Shown piece after piece: positions 1-8,544 of a stretch of DNA of 9,001 bases (positions are counted from its first letter, which is position 1; each line of letters begins with the position of its first letter). The position numbers and the translations under genes were made by a program. The stretch lies in the NCBI GenBank assembly GCA_003694425.1, contig RFJX01000085.1, positions 1 through 9,001 of the forward strand, in the 5' to 3' direction. The notes beneath the pieces are model-generated. The model was not told the DNA's origin, made no database searches, and saw nothing but the letters and a program-made list of their open reading frames with translations. This DNA comes from Gammaproteobacteria bacterium. Its GTDB lineage: Bacteria; Pseudomonadota; Gammaproteobacteria; J113.

Positions 1-27
1 AACCGGATGCTCACCGGGACCCGCTGA
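1..27 (+). CDS. 3' end of an unidentified upstream gene
   Basis: Frame 1 is open from the window edge and ends at TGA 25-27, encoding only the last eight residues (NRMLTGTR). The stop shares its final A with the ATG of the next gene (TGATG), a typical translational-coupling junction. Because the next gene is a histidine kinase, a response regulator is a reasonable guess for the missing gene, but the eight residues carry no diagnostic motif. The open frame could also be chance. Confidence 0.45.
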   Translation, partial: NRMLTGTR

Positions 28-749
28 TGGAGAAGGAGGCGACAGGAGAGAGCAGATCCGGGCGGGAAGCACCGACCGGGATGGATTTCACCCTGGTCCT
101 CGCCTCCTGCATCCACGACATGAAGAACTCGCTCGGGCTGATCCTGGCCCGCCTCGACCAGATCGCCTCCGCCGCCGGGGAGGGGCAGGTCCCGCCGGCC
201 GGGATGCTGGCTCGATTGCGGCACGAGGGCGGACGGCTCAACAACCAACTCATCCAGCTGCTGGCCATCTACCGCATCGGTCACGGTCAGTACTTCCCGG
301 AGATCGAGGAGCATGTGGTCGCTGAGTCCCTGCAGGAGTGGCTGATCCCGCAGCAGGAGTTGCTGGCCGAGCGGGACATCGCCGTGGAAATCGACTGCCC
401 GCCGGAACTCACCTGGTACTACGACCGTGACCTCCTCGGCGGCGTCCTCTCCAACATCCTGAACAACGCCTTCCGCTACACCCGGAGCCGGTTGCTGATC
501 CGGGCGCAGGAGAAGGAGGGGATGCTGGAGCTGCAGGTCCTGGACGACGGACCCGGCTATCCTCCGGCCATGCTGACCGATCCCGACCATCAGCAGGGGA
601 TCGACTTCGGTACCGGAAGCACCGGGATCGGCCTCTACTATGCCTCGCTGGTCGCCTCGCTGCATCGCAACCGCGGGCGGTCCGGCCAGATCCGCCTGGC
701 CAACGAAGGGTTCGATGGCGGCGGCTGTTTCACCATCCGCCTTCCCTGA
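27..749 (+). CDS. Soluble sensor-less histidine kinase (HisKA-like plus HATPase_c)
   Basis: This is a 240-residue protein with the kinase core of a two-component histidine kinase and little else. An H-box-like segment CIHDMKNSLGLIL places the candidate phosphoacceptor at His30. A helical dimerisation region follows to about residue 115. The ATPase domain then shows an N box (LSNILNNAFRYT, Asn143/Asn147), a G1 box (DDGPG, 173-177) and a G2 box (GTGSTGIGL, 195-203). No transmembrane segment, PAS, GAF or HAMP domain is present, so it is cytosolic and any signal must come from a partner protein. The start at 27 overlaps the upstream stop. An in-frame ATG at 81 (Met19) gives a 222-residue form beginning just before the H box, and neither start has a clear Shine-Dalgarno site. 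It probably works with a response regulator from the overlapping upstream gene (inference). The phosphorelay partner and signal are unknown. Confidence 0.85.
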   Translation: MEKEATGESRSGREAPTGMDFTLVLASCIHDMKNSLGLILARLDQIASAAGEGQVPPAGMLARLRHEGGRLNNQLIQLLAIYRIGHGQYFPEIEEHVVAESLQEWLIPQQELLAERDIAVEIDCPPELTWYYDRDLLGGVLSNILNNAFRYTRSRLLIRAQEKEGMLELQVLDDGPGYPPAMLTDPDHQQGIDFGTGSTGIGLYYASLVASLHRNRGRSGQIRLANEGFDGGGCFTIRLP

Positions 750-767: not shown

Positions 768-1562
768 ATGAGCTGGTGGGGCAAGATCATCGGCGGCGCC
801 TTCGGCTACATGCTGGGCGGCCCCCTGGGTGCCCTGCTGGGCGCGGCCATCGGCCACAATCTGGATCGCGGCATGGAGCGGCAGGGTGAGGCCGGGGCCT
901 TCGGTGGCGCCCCCGGCGAGCGGGAGCGGGTCCAGACCGCCTTCTTCACCGCCACCTTCAGCGTCATGGGGCACCTGGCCAAGGCGGACGGCCGGGTCAC
1001 CGAGGACGAGATCGAGACCGCCAGGCGCATCATGGGACAGATGGACCTGGACCCCGGACAGCGCCGGGCCGCCATCGGGCTGTTCCGCCAGGGCAAGCAA
1101 CCGGGCTTTCCCCTCGACCAGGTCCTGGACCAGTTCCGCGCCGAGTGCGGGCGGCGCGCCAACCTGATGCGCCTGTTTCTGGAGATCCAGCTCACCGCCG
1201 CCTATGCCGACGGGGTGCTCCATCCGGCGGAGAGGGCACTGCTCGAACACATCTGCCGTCGCCTGCGCTTTCCGCCGCGCGAGTTCCAGCGGCTCGAGGC
1301 GTTGGTGCGGGCGGCGAGGACGGGGGACACGACCGGCACGGATACCGGCCGCCCCTCCCTGGCCGAGGCCTACGCCATCCTCGGTGTCTCTCCCGACGCT
1401 CCGCTGAGCGAGGTCAGGCGGGCCTATCGGCGCCTGCTCAGCCAGCACCATCCGGACAAGCTGGTCTCGAAGGGCCTGCCCGAGGAGATGATGCGTCTTG
1501 CGGCGCAGAAGACCCACCAGATCCGCCAGGCCTGGGAGACCATCCGCAGCGCACGCGAGTAG
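768..1562 (+). CDS. djlA: DjlA-type membrane-anchored DnaJ co-chaperone
   Basis: The 264-residue product matches the DjlA layout and length (E. coli DjlA is about 270). The N-terminus MSWWGKIIGGAFGYMLGGPLG is a glycine-rich hydrophobic segment (about 5-29) that would serve as the single membrane anchor. A TerB-like helical domain spans about 55-182, with the acidic motifs AKADGRVTEDE near 71 and YADG near 146. A C-terminal J domain covers about 198-264 and carries the essential HPD triad at residues 228-230 (SQHHPDKL), so it should stimulate the ATPase of DnaK (Hsp70). In E. coli, DjlA overproduction influences the Rcs envelope-stress phosphorelay. A phosphorelay role here would be inference, though the gene directly follows a histidine kinase. 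TAG at 1560-1562 ends the gene, and the last coding bases run into a possible promoter region. Confidence 0.93.
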   Translation: MSWWGKIIGGAFGYMLGGPLGALLGAAIGHNLDRGMERQGEAGAFGGAPGERERVQTAFFTATFSVMGHLAKADGRVTEDEIETARRIMGQMDLDPGQRRAAIGLFRQGKQPGFPLDQVLDQFRAECGRRANLMRLFLEIQLTAAYADGVLHPAERALLEHICRRLRFPPREFQRLEALVRAARTGDTTGTDTGRPSLAEAYAILGVSPDAPLSEVRRAYRRLLSQHHPDKLVSKGLPEEMMRLAAQKTHQIRQAWETIRSARE

Positions 1563-1666: not shown

Positions 1667-3214
1667 GTGGCCGGTAACCGCCAGGGCCTGACCGACTTGC
1701 CAGAGCTGAAGCACTACACCGCTCCCGCGACGGGACTCCGGCAGCTCCAGGAGCTGCTGCCGGATGCATATTCCCTGCAGGGCTGCCCCGGCCACCGCCT
1801 GCAGCGCCGCTGGCTCGACAGCTTCGACCTGCGGCTGGAGCAGGCCGGGCTGCGCTGCCAGCTGCAGCAGGAGGGAGGGGTCTCGGAGCTGTTGCTGATC
1901 AGCCGGGAGGATGGAAAGGTCCTGGCCGCATCCAGCGTGGCCGGACCGCCCCTGCTGGCAAGGGACCTGCCTGAAGGGCCCCTGCGGGACCTGCTCGAAC
2001 CCCTGCTGGAGGTACGTGCCCTGCTGGAGCAGGCGGACCTCGAGACCCGGGTCACCCCCGCCCGGATCTGCGACCGGCGCGGCAAGACCGTGGCCCGGAT
2101 CCAGCTGGAGACCCCGTTCGGGGAGGGGCTTCCATCCTTCCTCACCCTCACCCCGCTCAGGGGCTACCGGAAGCAGGCCCGCCGGATCGATCGGCGGCTG
2201 CGACGCGCGGAAGGGGTCGAGGTCCTGGCAGGTGAGCTGCTGGACACCCTGCTCCAGTGGCGCGGGTACTGTCTCTATCGCCCGCCCGCCGGGCTCTCCG
2301 GGGTGGTCCTGGAGCCGGAGATGGCGGCCAACGAGGCCCTGGCGCGGCTGCTGCTGGGGCTGCTGGCGGTGATGAAGGCGAACGAGGCGGGCATCCTCGC
2401 CGATCTCGACAGCGAGTTCCTCCACGACTTCCGGGTCTCCCTGCGCCGGTCCCGCTCCCTCCTGGGACAGGTGCGCGGGGTGTTCGAGGAGCGGGACCTG
2501 AACCGCTTCGGCCGGGAGCTTGCCTGGCTGGCGGGGGCCACCAGCGACAAGCGCGACTTCGACGTCTTTCTGCTCCAGTTCGACCAGCGGGCCTCGCTCA
2601 TCGGCAGGGGCGACCGTCCCGCCCTGGAGCCGCTGCGGCGCTACCTGGAGCAGCAGCGGACACTGGCCCAGGGCCGCCTGCGCCGCACCCTCGAAAGCCG
2701 CCGCTATGCCCGCTTCAGACAGGCGTGGCGGGAATGGCTGGAACAGCAGGCCGCTCAGCCGGCCCGCCCGCCGACGGCGCTGGAGAGTTTCTCGGAGAAC
2801 ACCTGGCGGGTCTACCGCAAGGTCCTGCGCGAGGGAGGGGCGATCGACGACTCGAGCCCCGTCGAGGCGCTGCACGAACTGCGCAAGAGCTGCAAGAAGC
2901 TGCGTTACCTGATGGAGGCCGGACGCAGCCTCTATCCCCCGAAGCGGATCCGCCGGGCCATCGCCGAACTGAAACTGCTGCAGGACACCCTCGGCGCCAT
3001 CACCGACCTCGATGTCCAGCGCTCGCTGTTGCTGCGCTGGGAGCAGGTGCTGGCGAAGCGGGGGATCCCAGAGGAGACCATCGCCGCCATCGAGGCCCTG
3101 CGCGGGGTCCTGGGCCGGCAGGAACGCAAGGCGCGCAAACGCTTCGCCAGGACCTTCGAACGCTTCTCCGAGCGCGCCAACCGCAAGCGCTACCGGCGCC
3201 TGTTCCGCTCATGA
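1667..3214 (+). CDS. CHAD-domain protein with degenerate CYTH-like N-terminus
   Basis: The gene encodes 515 residues from GTG 1667. The C-terminal half (about 219-515) is a CHAD domain, an alpha-helical fold with conserved histidines and basic residues. The two diagnostic motifs are LHDFRVSLRRSRSLL (His253) and LHELRKSCKKLRYL (His403). CHAD domains bind polyphosphate and CHAD proteins have been found on polyphosphate granules. The N-terminal part resembles CYTH in RRWLDSFDLRLEQAGLRCQL (about 47-66, compare the CYTH pattern of a Y/F-D-T strand followed by L..AG..LR), but the catalytic ExExK signature is absent, so triphosphatase activity is unlikely. The C-terminus is strikingly basic (RQERKARKRFARTF onward), fitting a polyanion ligand. 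Its stop overlaps the parA-like start (ATGA, 3211-3214), implying coupled synthesis. The frame stays open upstream into djlA, but that extension overlaps djlA and is unlikely to be translated. Confidence 0.88.
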   Translation: MAGNRQGLTDLPELKHYTAPATGLRQLQELLPDAYSLQGCPGHRLQRRWLDSFDLRLEQAGLRCQLQQEGGVSELLLISREDGKVLAASSVAGPPLLARDLPEGPLRDLLEPLLEVRALLEQADLETRVTPARICDRRGKTVARIQLETPFGEGLPSFLTLTPLRGYRKQARRIDRRLRRAEGVEVLAGELLDTLLQWRGYCLYRPPAGLSGVVLEPEMAANEALARLLLGLLAVMKANEAGILADLDSEFLHDFRVSLRRSRSLLGQVRGVFEERDLNRFGRELAWLAGATSDKRDFDVFLLQFDQRASLIGRGDRPALEPLRRYLEQQRTLAQGRLRRTLESRRYARFRQAWREWLEQQAAQPARPPTALESFSENTWRVYRKVLREGGAIDDSSPVEALHELRKSCKKLRYLMEAGRSLYPPKRIRRAIAELKLLQDTLGAITDLDVQRSLLLRWEQVLAKRGIPEETIAAIEALRGVLGRQERKARKRFARTFERFSERANRKRYRRLFRS

Positions 3215-3957
3215 AGGTGATCGCCAGCTACAACATCAAGGGCGGCGTGGGCAAGACCGCCGCCTCGGTCAACCTGGCCTTCGCCGCCGCCGCGAGCGGC
3301 CGGCGCACCCTGCTGTGGGACCTGGACCCGCAGGGGGCCTCCAGCTACTACTTCCGGGTCAAGCCGAAGGTGCGCGGGGGCGGCCGCGCCCTGCTCGGCA
3401 AGGGCACCGAGCTCGGCCGCGCGATCAAGGCCAGTGACTGGCCCCGCCTCGACCTCATCCCCGCCGACTTCTCCTTCCGCCACCTGGACCTGGTGCTGCA
3501 GGAGGCGAAGCGCCCGGGCAAGCGCCTGCGCAAGGCACTCGCCCCGCTGGCATCGGAATACGACCTGGTGCTGCTGGACTGCCCCCCCAGCGTGTCGCTG
3601 CTGAGCGAGGGGGTGATGAGCGTGGCCGATCGCCTGCTGGTCCCGGTGATCCCCACCAGTCTCAGCCTGCGGGCCTATCGTCAGCTGCACCGGCTGTGCC
3701 GGGACCTGGAGCTGCCGGAGGGGCTGCTGGCCCCCTTCTTCTCCATGGTCGACCGGCGGCGCAAGCTGCACCGGGAGGTGGCGGCCCAGTTCTCCGGCCG
3801 CCATCGCGAACTCCTGCGCAGCTACATACCCTATGCCAGCGTCGTGGAGCAGATGGGACCCCGGCGGGCCCCCCTGCTGGCCTTCGCCCCCGCCTCCGAG
3901 GCCGGCCGCGCCTTCCGCCAGCTGTGGGAGGAAGTGGCCGCCCGCTGCGAAATCTGA
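3211..3957 (+). CDS. ParA-family (MinD/ParA/Mrp) cargo-positioning ATPase
   Basis: The 248-residue protein carries every core motif of a ParA ATPase. The deviant Walker A is KGGVGKT at 10-16, with the signature Lys10 and catalytic Lys15. Walker A' is WDLDPQG (36-42), and Walker B is LVLLDCPPS (119-127). Late elements typical of the family include FFSMVDRRRKLH (176-187) and a C-terminal IPYASVVEQMG segment. No N-terminal DNA-binding domain is present, so it is the short ParA type. No parB-like gene or parS-like repeats lie nearby, which argues against plasmid or chromosome partitioning. Proteins of this type form ATP-dependent dimers on the nucleoid and move a cargo bound by a partner protein. 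The ATG overlaps the CHAD stop by 4 bases, so the CHAD protein is the obvious candidate partner, with a polyphosphate granule as candidate cargo (inference). Other family roles cannot be excluded from sequence. Confidence 0.88.
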   Translation: MKVIASYNIKGGVGKTAASVNLAFAAAASGRRTLLWDLDPQGASSYYFRVKPKVRGGGRALLGKGTELGRAIKASDWPRLDLIPADFSFRHLDLVLQEAKRPGKRLRKALAPLASEYDLVLLDCPPSVSLLSEGVMSVADRLLVPVIPTSLSLRAYRQLHRLCRDLELPEGLLAPFFSMVDRRRKLHREVAAQFSGRHRELLRSYIPYASVVEQMGPRRAPLLAFAPASEAGRAFRQLWEEVAARCEI

Positions 3958-3961
3958 CCAT

Positions 3962-3969
3962 CGAGGGAG
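3962..3969 (+). promoter_or_regulatory. Ribosome binding site of the PAP gene
   Basis: GAGGGAGA lies 7 bases before ATG 3977 in the 19-base gap after the parA-like stop. It fixes the start at 3977 rather than at the earlier in-frame ATG at 3833, which lies inside the parA-like gene. Confidence 0.6.
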
Positions 3970-3976
3970 ACCAGCC

Positions 3977-5464
3977 ATGTTCGAAGTCGCCGAACTCGGC
4001 CATACCATCAGCAAGAAGGAGTACGAGGAACAGGTGGCCCAGCTGCGGGTCGACCTGCTGGAGGCGCAGCAGGACCTGAAGGATGCGGACTTCCCCGTCA
4101 TCATCCTGGTCTCCGGCGTGGACGGCGGCGGCAAGGGCAACGCCATCAACCTGCTCAACGAGTGGATGGACCCCCGCTACATCCGCACCCACGCCTTCGG
4201 CCCGCGTACCGAGGAGGAGCGGCTCCGGCCCCATTCCTGGCGCTACTGGATGGCCCTGCCGCCGAAGGGACGGACCGGAGTCTTCGTCGGCTCCTGGTAT
4301 TCCGAACCGATCTCGAAACGCATGAAGGGGGACCTGGACACCGCCGGCCTGGATGCCGCCCTGATCCAGATCAACGGCCTGGAGAAACAGCTCACCGACG
4401 ACGGCGCGCTGATCGTCAAGTGCTGGCTGCACCTCTCCAGGGAGCGTCAGAAGAAGCGCATCAAGCGGCTCCTGAAGGACCCGGAGAATGCCTGGCGGGT
4501 GAGCAGGCACGACCTGAAGAACCTCAAGCACTACGACGAGTTCATCTGCGTGGCCGAGCGGGTCCTGCGCGAGACCAGCACCGCCGAGGCGCCGTGGATG
4601 ATTATCGACGGCAGCAACAACCGCTACAGCGCCCTGACCGTCGGCCGGTACGTCCACGCCCAGATCCGCCAGCATCTCGAGGAGCGCAAGCTGGAGCGCC
4701 GCCATCGCCGCAAGCTGCCGCAGGTCGTCACGGGCCAGGAGATCGCCCTGCTCGACGCCCTGGACCTCTCCCTGCGCCTGAACAAGAAGGACTACCGCCA
4801 CCAGCTCGCCCTGCTGCAGGGCCGGCTCAACCGCCTCTCCCGGAAACAGGTCTCCGCCGGTCGCTCCCTCACCGTGGTGTTCGAGGGCTGGGACGCCGCC
4901 GGCAAGGGGGGCTGCATCCGCCGCATCACCCATGCCCTGGACGCGCGCTTCTATCAGGTGATCCCGATCGCCGCCCCCACCGACGAGGAGAAGGCGCACC
5001 ACTACCTGTGGCGCTTCTGGCGCCACATCCCGCGCGACGGCAGGACCACCATCTACGACCGCAGCTGGTACGGGCGGGTGCTGGTCGAGCGGATCGAGGG
5101 CTTCGCCCGCGAGGACGAATGGATGCGCGCCTACACCGAGATCAACCAGTTCGAGGAGGAGCTGTCCAGCCACGGGATCATCATCCTCAAGTTCTGGCTC
5201 CACATCTCCAAGGAAGAGCAGCTGCGCCGCTTCAAGGAGCGCGAGCAGATCCCCTACAAGCGCTTCAAGATCACCGAGGAGGACTACCGCAACCGCGAGA
5301 AGTGGGACGACTACAGCATGGCGGTGAACGACATGGTGACCCGCACCAGCAGCGAATTCGCCCCCTGGCACCTGATCGAGGCCGAGGACAAGCGCTACGC
5401 CCGGGTCAAGGTCCTGCGCACCATCGTGGAGCGGCTGGAGCGGGAGCTGGACGCGAAGTCGTGA
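3977..5464 (+). CDS. pap: Polyphosphate:AMP phosphotransferase (two-domain PPK2, class II)
   Basis: The 495-residue product has two tandem PPK2 domains, the arrangement of polyphosphate:AMP phosphotransferases (Pseudomonas aeruginosa PA3455 is about the same size). These enzymes transfer phosphate from polyphosphate to AMP to make ADP, and with adenylate kinase they can regenerate ATP. Domain 1 (about 12-235) has Walker A GVDGGGKG (47-54), but its Walker B position reads VGSWYSE (104-110) and lacks the Asp-Arg pair. Domain 2 (about 267-490) has Walker A GWDAAGKG (304-311) and an intact YDRSWYGR (360-367), so it is probably the catalytic half. This asymmetry is normal for the class. A highly basic linker (ERKLERRHRRKL, about 236-247) joins the halves. 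The gene follows the ParA-like gene by 19 bases and overlaps queG by 4, so it sits inside the operon. Its chemistry is the strongest functional clue that the upstream CHAD and ParA genes concern polyphosphate. Confidence 0.93.
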   Translation: MFEVAELGHTISKKEYEEQVAQLRVDLLEAQQDLKDADFPVIILVSGVDGGGKGNAINLLNEWMDPRYIRTHAFGPRTEEERLRPHSWRYWMALPPKGRTGVFVGSWYSEPISKRMKGDLDTAGLDAALIQINGLEKQLTDDGALIVKCWLHLSRERQKKRIKRLLKDPENAWRVSRHDLKNLKHYDEFICVAERVLRETSTAEAPWMIIDGSNNRYSALTVGRYVHAQIRQHLEERKLERRHRRKLPQVVTGQEIALLDALDLSLRLNKKDYRHQLALLQGRLNRLSRKQVSAGRSLTVVFEGWDAAGKGGCIRRITHALDARFYQVIPIAAPTDEEKAHHYLWRFWRHIPRDGRTTIYDRSWYGRVLVERIEGFAREDEWMRAYTEINQFEEELSSHGIIILKFWLHISKEEQLRRFKEREQIPYKRFKITEEDYRNREKWDDYSMAVNDMVTRTSSEFAPWHLIEAEDKRYARVKVLRTIVERLERELDAKS

Positions 5465-6543
5465 GCGAGGCCCTGCAGGAGTCCGGGGCCGATCCCGCTG
5501 CCGCCAGCCTGCGGCGGCGGCTGGAGGAGCAGGCCCGGGAACTCGGTTTCCAGCAGCTCGGCGTCGCCGACACCGATCTGGCCCCGGAGGAGGCGCGACT
5601 GCAGGAATGGCTGGCGCGGGGCTGCCACGGAGAGATGGGGTGGATGGCCCGCCATGGCCGCAGGCGCTGCCGCCCCGCGGAGCTGGTTCCCGGCACGGTG
5701 CGGGTGATCAGCGTTGCCCTGGACTATCTCCCCGCCAGGGGGGCGCCGCCGCTCGAGGTGCTGCGCGAGGGCACCCTCGGCTACGTCTCCCGCTACGCCC
5801 TGGGACGCGACTACCACCGGCTGATGCGCCGGCGGCTGCAGCGCCTGGCCGAATGGCTGGAGCGGGAGGCCGGGCCGCTGGGCTACCGGGTCTTCGTCGA
5901 TTCCGCCCCGGTGATGGAGAAGCCGCTGGCGCGCAACGCCGGCCTCGGCTGGGTCGGCAAGCACACCAACCTCATCGGCCGGCGCAACGGCTCCTGGTTC
6001 TTCCTCGGCGAGATCTACACCGACCTGCCGCTGCCCGTCGATCGCCCCTGGGGGGAGAGCCACTGCGGCTCCTGCACCGCCTGCATCGAGGTCTGCCCGA
6101 CACAGGCCATCATCGCCCCCTACCGGCTCGACGCCCGCCGCTGCATCTCCTATCTGACCATCGAGCACCCCGGCCCCATCCCGGAGGCGATCCGCCCCTT
6201 CATCGGCAATCGCATCTATGGTTGCGACGACTGCCAGCTGGTCTGTCCCTGGAACCGCCACGCCCGCCCCAGCCCGGAGACCGACTTCCTGCCCCGCAAC
6301 GGGCTCGACGCGCCGCGCCTGACCGAGCTGTTCGCCTGGGACGAGGAGACCTTCCTGCGCCGCACCGAGGGCAGCCCGATCCGCCGCATCGGCCACGAGC
6401 GCTGGCTGCGCAACATCGCCGTCGCCCTCGGCAACGGCCCCTCCACCGGGGCGGCGCTGGCCGCCCTGCGCGCCCGCCTCGACCATCCCTCCGCCCTGGT
6501 GCGCGAGCACGTGCGCTGGGCCCTGGCCCGCCTGACTCCCTGA
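5461..6543 (+). CDS. queG: Epoxyqueuosine reductase
   Basis: QueG carries out the last step of queuosine synthesis, reducing epoxyqueuosine to queuosine in the wobble position of GUN-anticodon tRNAs, using cobalamin and two [4Fe-4S] clusters. The 360-residue product has the bacterial-ferredoxin-like cysteine sets CGSCTACIEVCP (Cys202, 205, 208, 212) and CDDCQLVCPWN (Cys255, 258, 262), plus Cys228 between them. The conserved VDSAPVMEKPLARNAGLGWVGK region (147-167) supplies the cofactor-binding and presumed acid residue Asp147. A C-terminal HEAT-like helix pair (DHPSALVREHVRWALARL) is the tRNA-binding end. The GTG start overlaps the PAP stop (GTGA, 5461-5464), with only a weak GGGAG upstream, so translation is probably coupled. 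The usual neighbours seen in E. coli (tsaE and the NAD(P)HX repair gene) are absent here. Confidence 0.95.
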   Translation: MSEALQESGADPAAASLRRRLEEQARELGFQQLGVADTDLAPEEARLQEWLARGCHGEMGWMARHGRRRCRPAELVPGTVRVISVALDYLPARGAPPLEVLREGTLGYVSRYALGRDYHRLMRRRLQRLAEWLEREAGPLGYRVFVDSAPVMEKPLARNAGLGWVGKHTNLIGRRNGSWFFLGEIYTDLPLPVDRPWGESHCGSCTACIEVCPTQAIIAPYRLDARRCISYLTIEHPGPIPEAIRPFIGNRIYGCDDCQLVCPWNRHARPSPETDFLPRNGLDAPRLTELFAWDEETFLRRTEGSPIRRIGHERWLRNIAVALGNGPSTGAALAALRARLDHPSALVREHVRWALARLTP

Positions 6544-6551
6544 ACCCGACC

Positions 6552-7739
6552 ATGGCCGGCAACGACGGCAAGCGGCTGCCACGGACGGTGATCGTCCTGG
6601 GTCTGGTCTCGCTGCTCAACGATGCCGCCAGCGAGATGATCACCCCCCTGCTGCCGCTGTTTCTGACCCTGCAGCTGGGTGCCGGCCCGGCCATCGTCGG
6701 CCTCATCGAAGGGCTGGCGGAGACCACCTCCAGCCTGCTCAAGCTGTGGTCCGGGCGTCTGGCCGACCGCGGGGTCCCCGCCAAGGGGCTGGTGCTGGGG
6801 GGATACCTGCTGTCGAACAGCGCGCGCCCCCTGATCGGTCTCGCCACCGGCTGGGGCATGGTCCTCGGCCTGCGCTTCGGCGACCGTCTCGGCAAGGGCC
6901 TGCGCACCTCGCCGCGCGACGCCCTCATCTCGGCGGCGGTGCCGTCCGCGATCCGCGGTCGCGCCTTCGGCTTCCACCGGAGTCTGGACCACCTGGGGGC
7001 GATGATCGGGCCCCTGCTGGCCTTCCTCCTGCTGGCCGGAGGCATGGAGATGGGAGAGGTGTTCCTCTGCTCGGTGGTCCCCGGGATCCTGGTCGTCACC
7101 CTGCTGGCCCTCGGCCTGCCACCCGCCCCCCGGGTCCGCCCGGAGGCACCACCCCCGCTGCGCTGGCGGCCGCTGGATCGGCGCCTGCGGGGGCTGCTGC
7201 TGGCCGCCGCGGCCCTGGCCTTCGCCACCCTGCCCGAGGCCCTGGTCATCCTCTGGGCGGGACAGCAGGGGGTGGCGGTGGCCTGGATCCCCCTGCTCTG
7301 GGCCCTGGCCCACGCCGTCAAGTCCCTGCTGGCCTTCGCCGCCGGGGCCCTCTCGGACAGCCTGGGCCGGCTGCCGGTGGTGGTGGCGGGCTGGCTGCTG
7401 CGGGTTGCGGTACTGGCCGCCATGGCGCTGGCCCCGCCCCACTTCCTCACCGCGGTGCTGCTGTTCCTCGCCTACGCCGGCGGTCTGGCGGCCACCGAGG
7501 GGGCGGAACGCGCCTTCATCGGCGACCTGGCCCCCCCGGCGCTGAAGGCCACCGCCTTCGGCCTCTACCACCTCCTGGTGGGCCTGCTGGCCCTGCCGGG
7601 CGGGCTGCTCTTCGGCCTGCTCTGGCAGCAGTGGGGGATGGAGCCGGCCTTCCTCGCCTCGGCCCTGCTCACCGCCGGCGCCGCCACCACCCTCCTCCTG
7701 CTCACCCGGGCTCAGCCCCGCGCCGGGAGGCAGGCGTAG
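6552..7739 (+). CDS. Major facilitator superfamily permease, substrate unknown
   Basis: The 395-residue product is very hydrophobic with about 11-12 predicted membrane helices, separated near residues 190-212 by a proline- and arginine-rich cytoplasmic loop dividing the usual two six-helix halves. Motif-A-like loops appear in both halves: GRLADRGVPAK (68-78) after helix 2 and GALSDSLGR (265-273). The segment GDRLGKGLRTSPRDALI (110-126) followed by GRAFGFHRSLDHLGA (136-150) is characteristic of one bacterial MFS subgroup, whose substrate I cannot name. The ATG is 8 bases after the queG stop and has no recognisable Shine-Dalgarno site, so expression probably depends on translation of queG. It is the last gene of the plus-strand run. 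Nothing links its function to queuosine or polyphosphate, and export of a small organic compound is only a default guess. Confidence 0.85.
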   Translation: MAGNDGKRLPRTVIVLGLVSLLNDAASEMITPLLPLFLTLQLGAGPAIVGLIEGLAETTSSLLKLWSGRLADRGVPAKGLVLGGYLLSNSARPLIGLATGWGMVLGLRFGDRLGKGLRTSPRDALISAAVPSAIRGRAFGFHRSLDHLGAMIGPLLAFLLLAGGMEMGEVFLCSVVPGILVVTLLALGLPPAPRVRPEAPPPLRWRPLDRRLRGLLLAAAALAFATLPEALVILWAGQQGVAVAWIPLLWALAHAVKSLLAFAAGALSDSLGRLPVVVAGWLLRVAVLAAMALAPPHFLTAVLLFLAYAGGLAATEGAERAFIGDLAPPALKATAFGLYHLLVGLLALPGGLLFGLLWQQWGMEPAFLASALLTAGAATTLLLLTRAQPRAGRQA

Positions 7740-7857: not shown

Positions 7858-8544
7858 TCAAGCATGCGGCTCGCGGAATGCCTCTACCAGGACCTGCCGG
7901 GCGATGGTCCGCCGGCGCGGTGGCAGGCGGGGGTCGTCGCGCAGCCGCACAAGGGCCTCTCTGGCCGCCTCCGAGCCGCGGATGGCCAGGGACTTGATCG
8001 CCGCCTCCGCCGGGTAGTCGATGTCCTCCCGGGCGATCGCCTCCAGTTCCGCCACGTCGCGGTCGTCGCCGGTGAAGCCCAGGGCGACCGCCGCCTGGGC
8101 CCGGGCCAGGGGGTCGGGATGGCGCAGGTGGGCGCGGATCGCCCGCAGCCAGGGGGAGTCCGCCCCGCCCTCGATCCGCTGCAGGGTGTGGGCCAGGGCC
8201 ACCCGCAGCGCCGGATCGGCAAAGGCCTCCGGTGCCAGTCCCGAGCCGGGTGGCGGCCCCTCGTTCCAGAGCCGGTGGAGGAAGGAGACCACCTCCGGAT
8301 CACCCCGCAGGTAATAGAGTCGCAGGATCAGGTTGGCCCGCTCCATGGCGTCCCTCGCCCCGGCCAGCAGGGGTAATACCTCCGTCAGGCCGGCCTCTCC
8401 CCGCTCGATAGCAGCAACGGGATCGGCCGCTGCCCCGGGGCGGGAATGGCCGGGTCCCTGTGGCTGCGGCGTGGAATCCTCGCCGCAGCCGCCAAGCAGG
8501 AGGAGCGGCAGCAGCAGGACCGGGAGCCGGGAGACGGCGGTCAC
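7858..8544 (-). CDS. HEAT-repeat lipoprotein
   Basis: The 228-residue product begins with a lipoprotein signal peptide: a short N-terminus with one Arg, a leucine-rich core and the lipobox LLGGC with Cys20 as the lipid-modified residue. Residue +2 is Gly, not Asp, so under the E. coli Lol rule it would go to the outer membrane. A low-complexity Pro/Gly linker (about 23-40) precedes an all-helical body with HEAT-like repeats, the clearest being DPALRVALAHTLQRI (110-124), HPDPLARAQAAVALGFTGD (142-160) and PAEAAIKSLAIRGSEAA (178-194). Such repeats are protein-binding scaffolds. No enzymatic motif is visible. The GTG start overlaps the stop of the upstream oxidoreductase (GTGA on the minus strand) with no clear Shine-Dalgarno site, indicating coupled translation. 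I do not recognise a named family, and its partner is unknown. Confidence 0.8.
   Translation of the reverse strand: MTAVSRLPVLLLPLLLLGGCGEDSTPQPQGPGHSRPGAAADPVAAIERGEAGLTEVLPLLAGARDAMERANLILRLYYLRGDPEVVSFLHRLWNEGPPPGSGLAPEAFADPALRVALAHTLQRIEGGADSPWLRAIRAHLRHPDPLARAQAAVALGFTGDDRDVAELEAIAREDIDYPAEAAIKSLAIRGSEAAREALVRLRDDPRLPPRRRTIARQVLVEAFREPHA

What the first reader, a model, noticed from the sequence alone, without database searches (positions are those of the whole stretch)
1667..5464. CHAD - ParA - PAP gene trio: candidate polyphosphate-granule positioning and use module
Seen: a CHAD protein, an orphan ParA-type ATPase and a two-domain PPK2 are encoded consecutively with a 4-base overlap and a 19-base gap. 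Known: CHAD domains target polyphosphate granules, class II PPK2 consumes polyphosphate, and ParA-family ATPases position non-DNA cargo such as carboxysomes through adaptor proteins. Inference: the CHAD protein binds the granule and acts as the ParA adaptor, so granules are spaced or shared between daughter cells, while PAP draws on the polymer. I do not know of a described system with this exact composition.
Basis: partly seen in the sequence, partly recalled or inferred. Interest (0 to 1): 0.75.

Follow-up and report, generated by a model that had tools for sequence, protein, structure and literature searches.

The report
ParA system likely positioning polyphosphate granules
Two overlapping genes here, for a protein predicted to bind polyphosphate and for a ParA-type ATPase, recur side by side in bacteria labelled as ten phyla, and together they would likely space out and share polyphosphate storage granules between daughter cells, a job for which no ATP-driven machine turned up in the literature searched.

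Summary
The trio is real and placed as stated: CHAD protein (1667-3214, GTG start), ParA-type ATPase (3211-3957, 4-base overlap), two-domain polyphosphate:AMP phosphotransferase PAP (3977-5464, 19-base gap). The conserved unit is the CHAD-ParA pair; PAP is local. In 369 class genomes CHAD lies directly upstream of this ParA at 41 of 56 places, window included; among the 80 nearest named relatives at 54 of 80, labelled as ten phyla, and 36 of those 54 keep the 4-base overlap. Eight of 18 tested genomes with the genes apart carry the same CHAD subfamily elsewhere. Natural CHAD-ParA fusions exist in protein databases, though many look like frameshifts. The polyphosphate-contacting residues of the solved Chlorobium CHAD are kept in the window and in 28-29 of 29 aligned members. 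PPK1 occurs in 50 of 55 ParA genomes, against 42 of 84 without. Best reading: a McdAB-like positioning system whose cargo is the polyphosphate granule and whose adaptor is the CHAD protein. Nothing is shown in cells, and some ParA genomes lack CHAD. Two Acidithiobacillus papers mention parA beside CHAD, neither with a positioning role. New variant of a known kind.

The parts
1667..3214 (+). CHAD protein, 515 aa, GTG start; predicted polyphosphate-granule adaptor
   Evidence: PF05235 E 7e-55; alignment profile matches Chlorobium CHAD 6qv7/6qva at E 1.7e-97, window alone E 2.4e-47
1706..2260 (+). N-terminal domain of the CHAD protein with triphosphate-tunnel (CYTH/TTM)-like fold, without the ExExK motif
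   Evidence: AlphaFold model and Foldseek: best match to a TTM-only structure E 4.5e-5, target TM-scores 0.42-0.69; Pfam CYTH in 0 of 29 members; ExExK in 0 of 29 and in 0 of 32 full-length frames before the DxF motif
2351..3031 (+). CHAD domain with H253, R256, R260, R296, R413, Y414
   Evidence: corresponding residues named in PMC6537752 section 5
3211..3957 (+). ParA-type ATPase, 248 aa, basic (pI 10.2)
   Evidence: PF13614 E 4e-32; Foldseek to Soj/ParA, TM 0.86-0.90; pI
3211..3214 (+). ATGA overlap of CHAD stop and ParA start (likely translational coupling)
   Evidence: sequence; same overlap in 18 of 38 class pairs and 36 of 54 named pairs
3238..3258 (+). deviant Walker A KGGVGKT (signature lysine K10)
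3977..5464 (+). two-domain PPK2, polyphosphate:AMP phosphotransferase (PAP); local neighbour, not part of the conserved pair
   Evidence: TIGR03708 above cut-off; neighbourhood comparison
768..1562 (+). djlA-like co-chaperone upstream (flank shared with some relatives)
   Evidence: PRK09430 318.9 bits, cut-off 162; djlA-CHAD-ParA also in L066 and L085
5461..6543 (+). queG downstream (flank shared with some relatives)
   Evidence: TIGR00276 494.7 bits, cut-off 200; near ParA in L057, L058, L065, L066, L085, L092

Best explanation
The CHAD-ParA gene pair is conserved as a unit, and it likely works as a McdAB-like positioning system whose cargo is predicted to be the polyphosphate granule. Predicted steps: (1) the CHAD domain binds polyphosphate on the granule through its basic groove; (2) ATP-bound ParA dimers coat the nucleoid; (3) the CHAD protein on the granule meets ParA, triggers ATP hydrolysis and leaves a ParA-poor zone behind, so the granule moves along the gradient and several granules end up spaced and shared at division; (4) in this genome PAP, encoded in the same gene run, would draw on the polymer. 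Shown by sequence: the gene pair, its overlap, its spread, the intact ATPase motifs, the conserved polyphosphate residues, some single-chain CHAD-ParA proteins. Inferred: binding of CHAD to ParA, nucleoid binding, movement, spacing.
For: Adjacency 41 of 56 ParA places in 369 class genomes, window included; ParA and CHAD co-occur in 48 of 55 genomes vs CHAD in 72 of 314 without this ParA, Fisher 6e-20 without correction for relatedness. Named survey: 54 of 80 linked, labelled as ten phyla. Four-base overlap in 36 of 54 and 18 of 38. Where the genes are apart, the same TTM-like+CHAD subfamily is elsewhere in 8 of 18 genomes tested, including the 7 Methylococcales tested. PolyP residues H253/R256/R260/R296/R413/Y414 each in 28-29 of 29 (the 29 are the window and 28 of 38 linked frames); the one member that lost them, L080, is a second copy in a genome with an intact pair, L041. 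L231 (Chlorobiaceae) CHAD matches the solved Chlorobium CHAD at E 1.6e-101 and overlaps ParA by 4 bases. Single-chain CHAD+ParA proteins: 32 of the best 120 listed; 8 of 32 pass a profile test of an intact joint and complete ParA, 6 of these without scrambled stretches by eye; one, P0013, has the order ParA-CHAD and a linker like that of SixA-CHAD relatives. PPK1 in 50 of 55 ParA genomes against 42 of 84 without. ParA beside PPK1 without CHAD in L051 and L214.
Against: No experiment. Fifteen of 56 class places and 26 of 80 named loci lack adjacent CHAD (6 of the 26 had under 1.7 kb upstream); 7 of the 55 class ParA genomes have no CHAD, and of 18 named unlinked genomes tested 6 have none, 4 of them Bacteroidota. 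G069 and G199 keep ParA with neither CHAD nor PPK1 found (MAGs 78% and 64% complete), and G097, G217, G316 have the pair but no PPK1 found. Members of the CHAD subfamily occur without ParA (L098, L114, L122, L124). Pfam's BcsQ and MipZ models also pass their cut-offs for this ParA (34.6 vs 21.3 and 32.5 vs 20.7 bits). No long disordered basic N-terminus of the kind recalled for ParA activators is seen (only residues 1-9 under pLDDT 50). Many fusions have a scrambled CHAD end and are probably frameshifts; none of 195 fetched loci holds a fused frame. Polyphosphate genes are near only a minority of pairs: 8 of 40 and 6 of 54 loci, no more often than near CHAD genes without ParA, 16 of 59. The basic pI is also seen in family members without CHAD.
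Confidence: 0.62

Rival explanations
1. ParA acts with CHAD on polyphosphate but as a switch, not a positioner: an ATP-sensing partner (as BcsQ is thought to be for cellulose synthase) that controls access of PPK1/PAP/PPX to the granule or the CHAD protein's activity.
For: Pfam's BcsQ model passes its cut-off (34.6 vs 21.3 bits) although NCBIfam's does not (61.4 vs 157.85); PAP beside ParA in the window; ParA beside PPK1 without CHAD in L051 and L214.
Against: The best sequence and fold matches are Soj/ParA rather than BcsQ; the polyphosphate enzymes nearby vary from locus to locus while CHAD is constant.
Confidence: 0.22
2. The CHAD protein is a class IV adenylate cyclase or triphosphatase (CYTH/TTM) regulated by polyphosphate, and ParA is incidental, as proposed for Acidithiobacillus.
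For: PMC6416229 section 11 (read) proposes a cyclase for the Acidithiobacillus CYTH-CHAD protein in the folD-ppk-parA cluster and reports conserved active-site residues there; the window's N-terminal domain has a TTM-like fold.
Against: ExExK found in 0 of 29 members and 0 of 32 full-length frames; Pfam CYTH matches 0 of 29 at E 0.1; stand-alone CHAD genes without that domain also sit by ParA (G137, G201, G250).
Confidence: 0.07
3. ParA moves or anchors something else (a cargo unrelated to polyphosphate) and CHAD-ParA is only a co-transcribed habit.
For: Family members with quite different neighbours (acyl-CoA-ligase-like and nadA-like in L047 and L053; esterase-like in Bacteroidota; read by eye); ParA kept without CHAD and PPK1 in G069 and G199.
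Against: Co-retention of the same CHAD subfamily when unlinked in 8 of 18, fusions, PPK1 enrichment.
Confidence: 0.09

Closest known systems
McdA/McdB carboxysome positioning (ParA-type ATPase plus cargo-bound adaptor)
   Same: ParA-type ATPase gene beside a gene for a cargo-binding protein; cargo is a metabolic body; McdA structures are among the fold matches.
   Different: Adaptor is a CHAD protein, not McdB; predicted cargo is polyphosphate; only 17-19% identity to McdA in Foldseek.
AlgP, the DNA-binding protein that spaces polyphosphate granules in Pseudomonas aeruginosa (PMC9239181, passages seen)
   Same: Same cargo and same outcome predicted.
   Different: AlgP is a histone-H1-like DNA-binding protein; the 2025 review PMC13052382 (passages seen) marks ATP dependence of polyphosphate granule spacing as unknown.
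Chromosomal/plasmid ParABS
   Same: ATPase fold and motifs.
   Different: No ParB-like protein among the 8 window proteins scanned; this genome has a separate Soj-like gene on contig C116.
CHAD phosins (polyphosphate-binding; Chlorobium CtCHAD 6qva)
   Same: Domain and polyphosphate residues; a similar two-domain architecture is inferred from the published residue numbers.
   Different: No ATPase partner was described for CHAD proteins in the parts of PMC6537752 I saw (passages and section 5 part 2).
Acidithiobacillus folD-ppk-parA-CHAD cluster (PMC6416229, PMC10892726)
   Same: parA next to CHAD and ppk.
   Different: These papers call ParA a chromosome or plasmid partition protein and discuss cAMP signalling or copper, not granule positioning (sections read; passages).

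Membership tests
ParA/MinD deviant Walker A ATPases | KGGxGKT with signature lysine, Walker A' and Walker B Asp | tested here: met
   KGGxGKT 40 of 40; K10, K15, D37, D39, D123 invariant
ParA/MinD deviant Walker A ATPases | Soj/ParA fold | tested here: met
   Foldseek TM 0.86-0.90 to Soj/ParA
ParA cargo-positioning systems (McdAB-like) | adjacent gene for a cargo-bound partner | tested here: met
   CHAD adjacent 41 of 56 and 54 of 80; cargo binding itself is inferred from conserved residues
ParA cargo-positioning systems (McdAB-like) | nucleoid binding, partner-stimulated ATPase, mislocalised cargo in mutants | not testable with these tools
   needs experiments; only the high pI of ParA is known (10.2; median 9.48, 36 of 40 at 8 or more)
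ParABS DNA segregation | ParB partner gene next to parA | tested here: not met
   no ParB-like match among the 8 window proteins scanned; parS sites were not searched
MinD | C-terminal amphipathic membrane helix after the core | tested here: inconclusive
   model ends 3 residues after helix 230-245; membrane binding not tested
CHAD domain (PF05235) phosins | CHAD domain with conserved polyphosphate-contacting basic residues | tested here: met
   E 7e-55; residues in 28-29 of 29
CHAD domain (PF05235) phosins | location on polyphosphate granules in cells | not testable with these tools
   reported for other CHAD proteins in the papers seen, not for this one
CYTH/TTM enzymes (class IV cyclase, triphosphatase) | ExExK motif | tested here: not met
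   0 of 29, 0 of 32 full-length frames; Pfam CYTH 0 of 29
Polyphosphate:AMP phosphotransferase (two-domain class II PPK2) | TIGR03708 above cut-off, two PPK2 domains | tested here: met
   734.6 bits vs 547.65, two PF03976 stretches

The most novel reading that the evidence does not exclude
A phylum-spanning, ATP-driven partition system for polyphosphate granules: ParA surfs the nucleoid and the CHAD protein is at once granule tag and ParA activator, giving polyphosphate bodies the same kind of inheritance machinery as plasmids and carboxysomes.
Probability: 0.5. Interest if true: 0.87.

Novelty: new variant of a known kind. Interest (0 to 1): 0.75.

Why it matters
Polyphosphate granules are widespread bacterial storage bodies, and the 2025 review seen here (PMC13052382, passages) marks the ATP dependence of their spacing as unknown. 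A two-gene unit that can be deleted and tagged makes that question directly testable in species that are not pathogens, and it gives the CHAD family, known mainly as polyphosphate binders, a concrete job. It would also add a new cargo to the ParA/MinD list.

Tried and rejected
PAP as a fixed third member: rejected. A ParA-binding peptide at the CHAD C-terminus: the conserved tail is also present in subfamily members without adjacent ParA (L114, L122, L124), so it is not ParA-specific. CYTH enzyme role. Halothiobacillus neapolitanus as a model already covering this ATPase: its paper PMC10241942 (passages seen) has no occurrence of CHAD, and the ATPases it leaves aside are tied to conjugation and nitrogen metabolism; sequences were not compared. 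CHAD-ParA fusions as clean proof: downgraded, because many of the 32 show a scrambled CHAD end. Polyphosphate-gene neighbours as ParA-specific evidence: downgraded, since CHAD genes without ParA have them as often. Tree: linkage state changes 11 to 14 times on FastTree trees of 136 ParA rows, which cannot tell gain from loss. A distance-correlation test of the two proteins was left out for lack of a fair control.
Full report
Observation. The window carries a same-strand run in close order: djlA-like (768-1562), CHAD (1667-3214, GTG start), ParA-type ATPase (3211-3957), PAP (3977-5464), queG (5461-6543) and an MFS gene (6552-7739). The CHAD stop and ParA start share ATGA.

What is conserved. 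I searched 369 genomes of the class with the ParA protein and with PF05235. ParA (E 1e-40 or better) was at 56 places in 55 genomes, CHAD at 134 places in 120 genomes (one search scored at most 7 candidates per genome). CHAD lay directly upstream on the same strand at 41 of 56, the window being one of them. CHAD was in 48 of 55 ParA genomes and in 72 of 314 without this ParA (Fisher 6e-20, not corrected for relatedness). A PPK2-type gene directly after ParA on the same strand was in none of the 55 class loci or 80 named loci, as far as contigs reach; PPK2-type hits within about 4 kb were in L038, L039, L069 and L070 and in L158, L182, L223 and L236. The flanks djlA and queG recur around CHAD-ParA in L066 and L085 without PAP, and L057 and L058 keep djlA-ParA-queG without CHAD.

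Outside the class. CHAD was directly upstream in 54 of 80 (6 of the 26 misses had under 1.7 kb of upstream DNA). By NCBI label the 54 fall in ten phyla, 31 of them Pseudomonadota and 10 Actinomycetota, 2 unassigned; most are MAGs, so single labels may be wrong. The 4-base overlap is kept in 36 of 54, a 1-base overlap in 8 of 54, of which 3 have doubtful starts set by alignment; in the class set 18 and 5 of 38. The two sets share some genomes (for one, L195 and L085 lie on contigs of the same length).

Pairing beyond adjacency. Of the 26 named loci without adjacent CHAD I tested 18 genomes (with two linked ones as controls, both positive). CHAD is elsewhere in 12 of 18, and in 8 of 18 it is the same long subfamily with the TTM-like front part (profile E 1e-137 or better): the 7 Methylococcales tested and one Acidobacteriota. 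Six of 18 have no CHAD at E 1e-6. In four of the Methylococcales loci a SixA-like gene lies next to this CHAD, and PstS/PstC-like genes are close by in some (names by reading). From the CHAD side, of 60 CHAD places without a ParA hit that I fetched (of 93), one (L100) does have ParA directly downstream, in two pieces; L115 and L134 have weak ParA-like hits about 2 kb away; the others show none (in L154 my profile did not find the CHAD). Four long-subfamily members lack ParA nearby (L098, L114, L122, L124), and their genomes are not among the 55.

Fusions. A search with parts of the window's CHAD and ParA joined gave 557 proteins, of which the best 120 were listed; 32 of the 120 hold both domains. 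In 8 of 32 ParA is complete and CHAD runs intact to the joint by profile (P0005, P0006, P0009, P0013, P0014, P0015, P0016, P0031). By eye P0014 and P0031 still hold scrambled stretches, and P0015 and P0016 hold only the end of CHAD. P0013 has the order ParA then CHAD, and its linker resembles that of SixA-CHAD proteins of the same lineage (P0121, P0130), which argues for a true domain swap; no other ParA-CHAD protein of that lineage was among the 81. Many others show a scrambled CHAD end, as a frameshift in a GC-rich pair would give. No fetched locus of 195 has a fused frame. I treat fusions as support of moderate weight.

Polyphosphate link. The nearest solved structure is the CHAD domain of Chlorobium tepidum, also crystallised with polyphosphate (6qva). 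Its polyphosphate residues His253, Arg256, Arg260, Arg296, Arg418/Tyr419 (PMC6537752 section 5, part 2 read) are H253, R256, R260, R296, R413, Y414 in the window; each is kept in 28 or 29 of 29 aligned members, these being the window and 28 of 38 linked frames. The exception, L080, is a second copy in a genome that also has an intact pair (L041). A Chlorobiaceae locus, L231, has a close relative of the solved protein (E 1.6e-101) overlapping ParA by 4 bases; C. tepidum's own locus was not looked up. PPK1 is in 50 of 55 ParA genomes and in 42 of 84 genomes without it (51 of 94 in all, 10 of the 94 being ParA genomes, 9 of these with PPK1; that call used genomes at least 90% complete apart from the window's own). 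PPK1, PPK2 or PPX lie in the fetched flanks of 8 of 40 class pairs and 6 of 54 named pairs, and of 16 of 59 CHAD genes without ParA, so this neighbourhood signal belongs to CHAD in general. ParA without CHAD sits beside PPK1 in L051 (Gammaproteobacteria) and L214 (Marinobacter).

Anatomy. ParA is modelled at pLDDT 94.5 and matches Soj/ParA best; it is basic (pI 10.2; median 9.48 in 40), but so are family members without CHAD (median 9.34 in 15) and one other ParA-like protein of this genome (9.4), while its Soj-like paralogue is at 5.4. Other ParA/MinD-like genes of the genome sit beside ParB/Gid-like, chemotaxis/motor-like and flagellar genes (read by eye), so those usual cargos are probably served by others. 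The CHAD protein is modelled at pLDDT 91.9; its front domain has a TTM-like fold but neither a Pfam CYTH match nor an ExExK motif, so it is probably not an enzyme of that family.

Literature. Searches of the held library, whose listings are capped, showed no paper on a ParA system for polyphosphate granules; subscription journals are mostly and bioRxiv is not held. Two Acidithiobacillus papers report parA beside CHAD and ppk (PMC6416229 section 11; PMC10892726 section 3.3) without that idea. The 2025 review PMC13052382 (passages) names AlgP for polyphosphate granules and leaves the spacing step and ATP use open.

Verdict. CHAD and this ParA very likely act together; that they position polyphosphate granules is the best-fitting and testable mechanism, at about 0.6. 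PAP is a sensible but local companion.

Noticed in passing
L039, L069-L072, L074, L077, L089, L091, L172, L174, L203 and others; P0052, P0121, P0130: SixA-like phosphohistidine phosphatase genes recur near CHAD-ParA (12 of 40 class pairs, 8 of 54 named pairs) and are fused to CHAD in some proteins.
   Followed up: partly
P0037, P0041: ParA of this family fused to a CYTH domain without CHAD (Pfam PF01928), a second triphosphate-related partner.
   Followed up: no
P0091, P0109, P0112, P0118: Relatives of this ParA fused to a substrate-binding SBP_bac_3 domain (PF00497).
   Followed up: no
L080 and L041 (same genome G289): Two CHAD-ParA pairs in one genome; in one the CHAD polyphosphate residues are lost while ParA is kept.
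   Followed up: partly
L057, L058: djlA-ParA-queG with CHAD missing; in both genomes (G199, G069) no CHAD or PPK1 was found, though the MAGs are incomplete.
   Followed up: partly
L098, L100, L226: PiT-like phosphate transporter and DUF47-like genes beside CHAD or ParA (read by eye).
   Followed up: partly
window 27-749: Histidine-kinase-like protein with an HATPase domain but no HisKA match in Pfam.
   Followed up: no
window 7858-8544 (minus strand): HEAT-repeat protein with a lipoprotein-like start by eye, function unknown.
   Followed up: no
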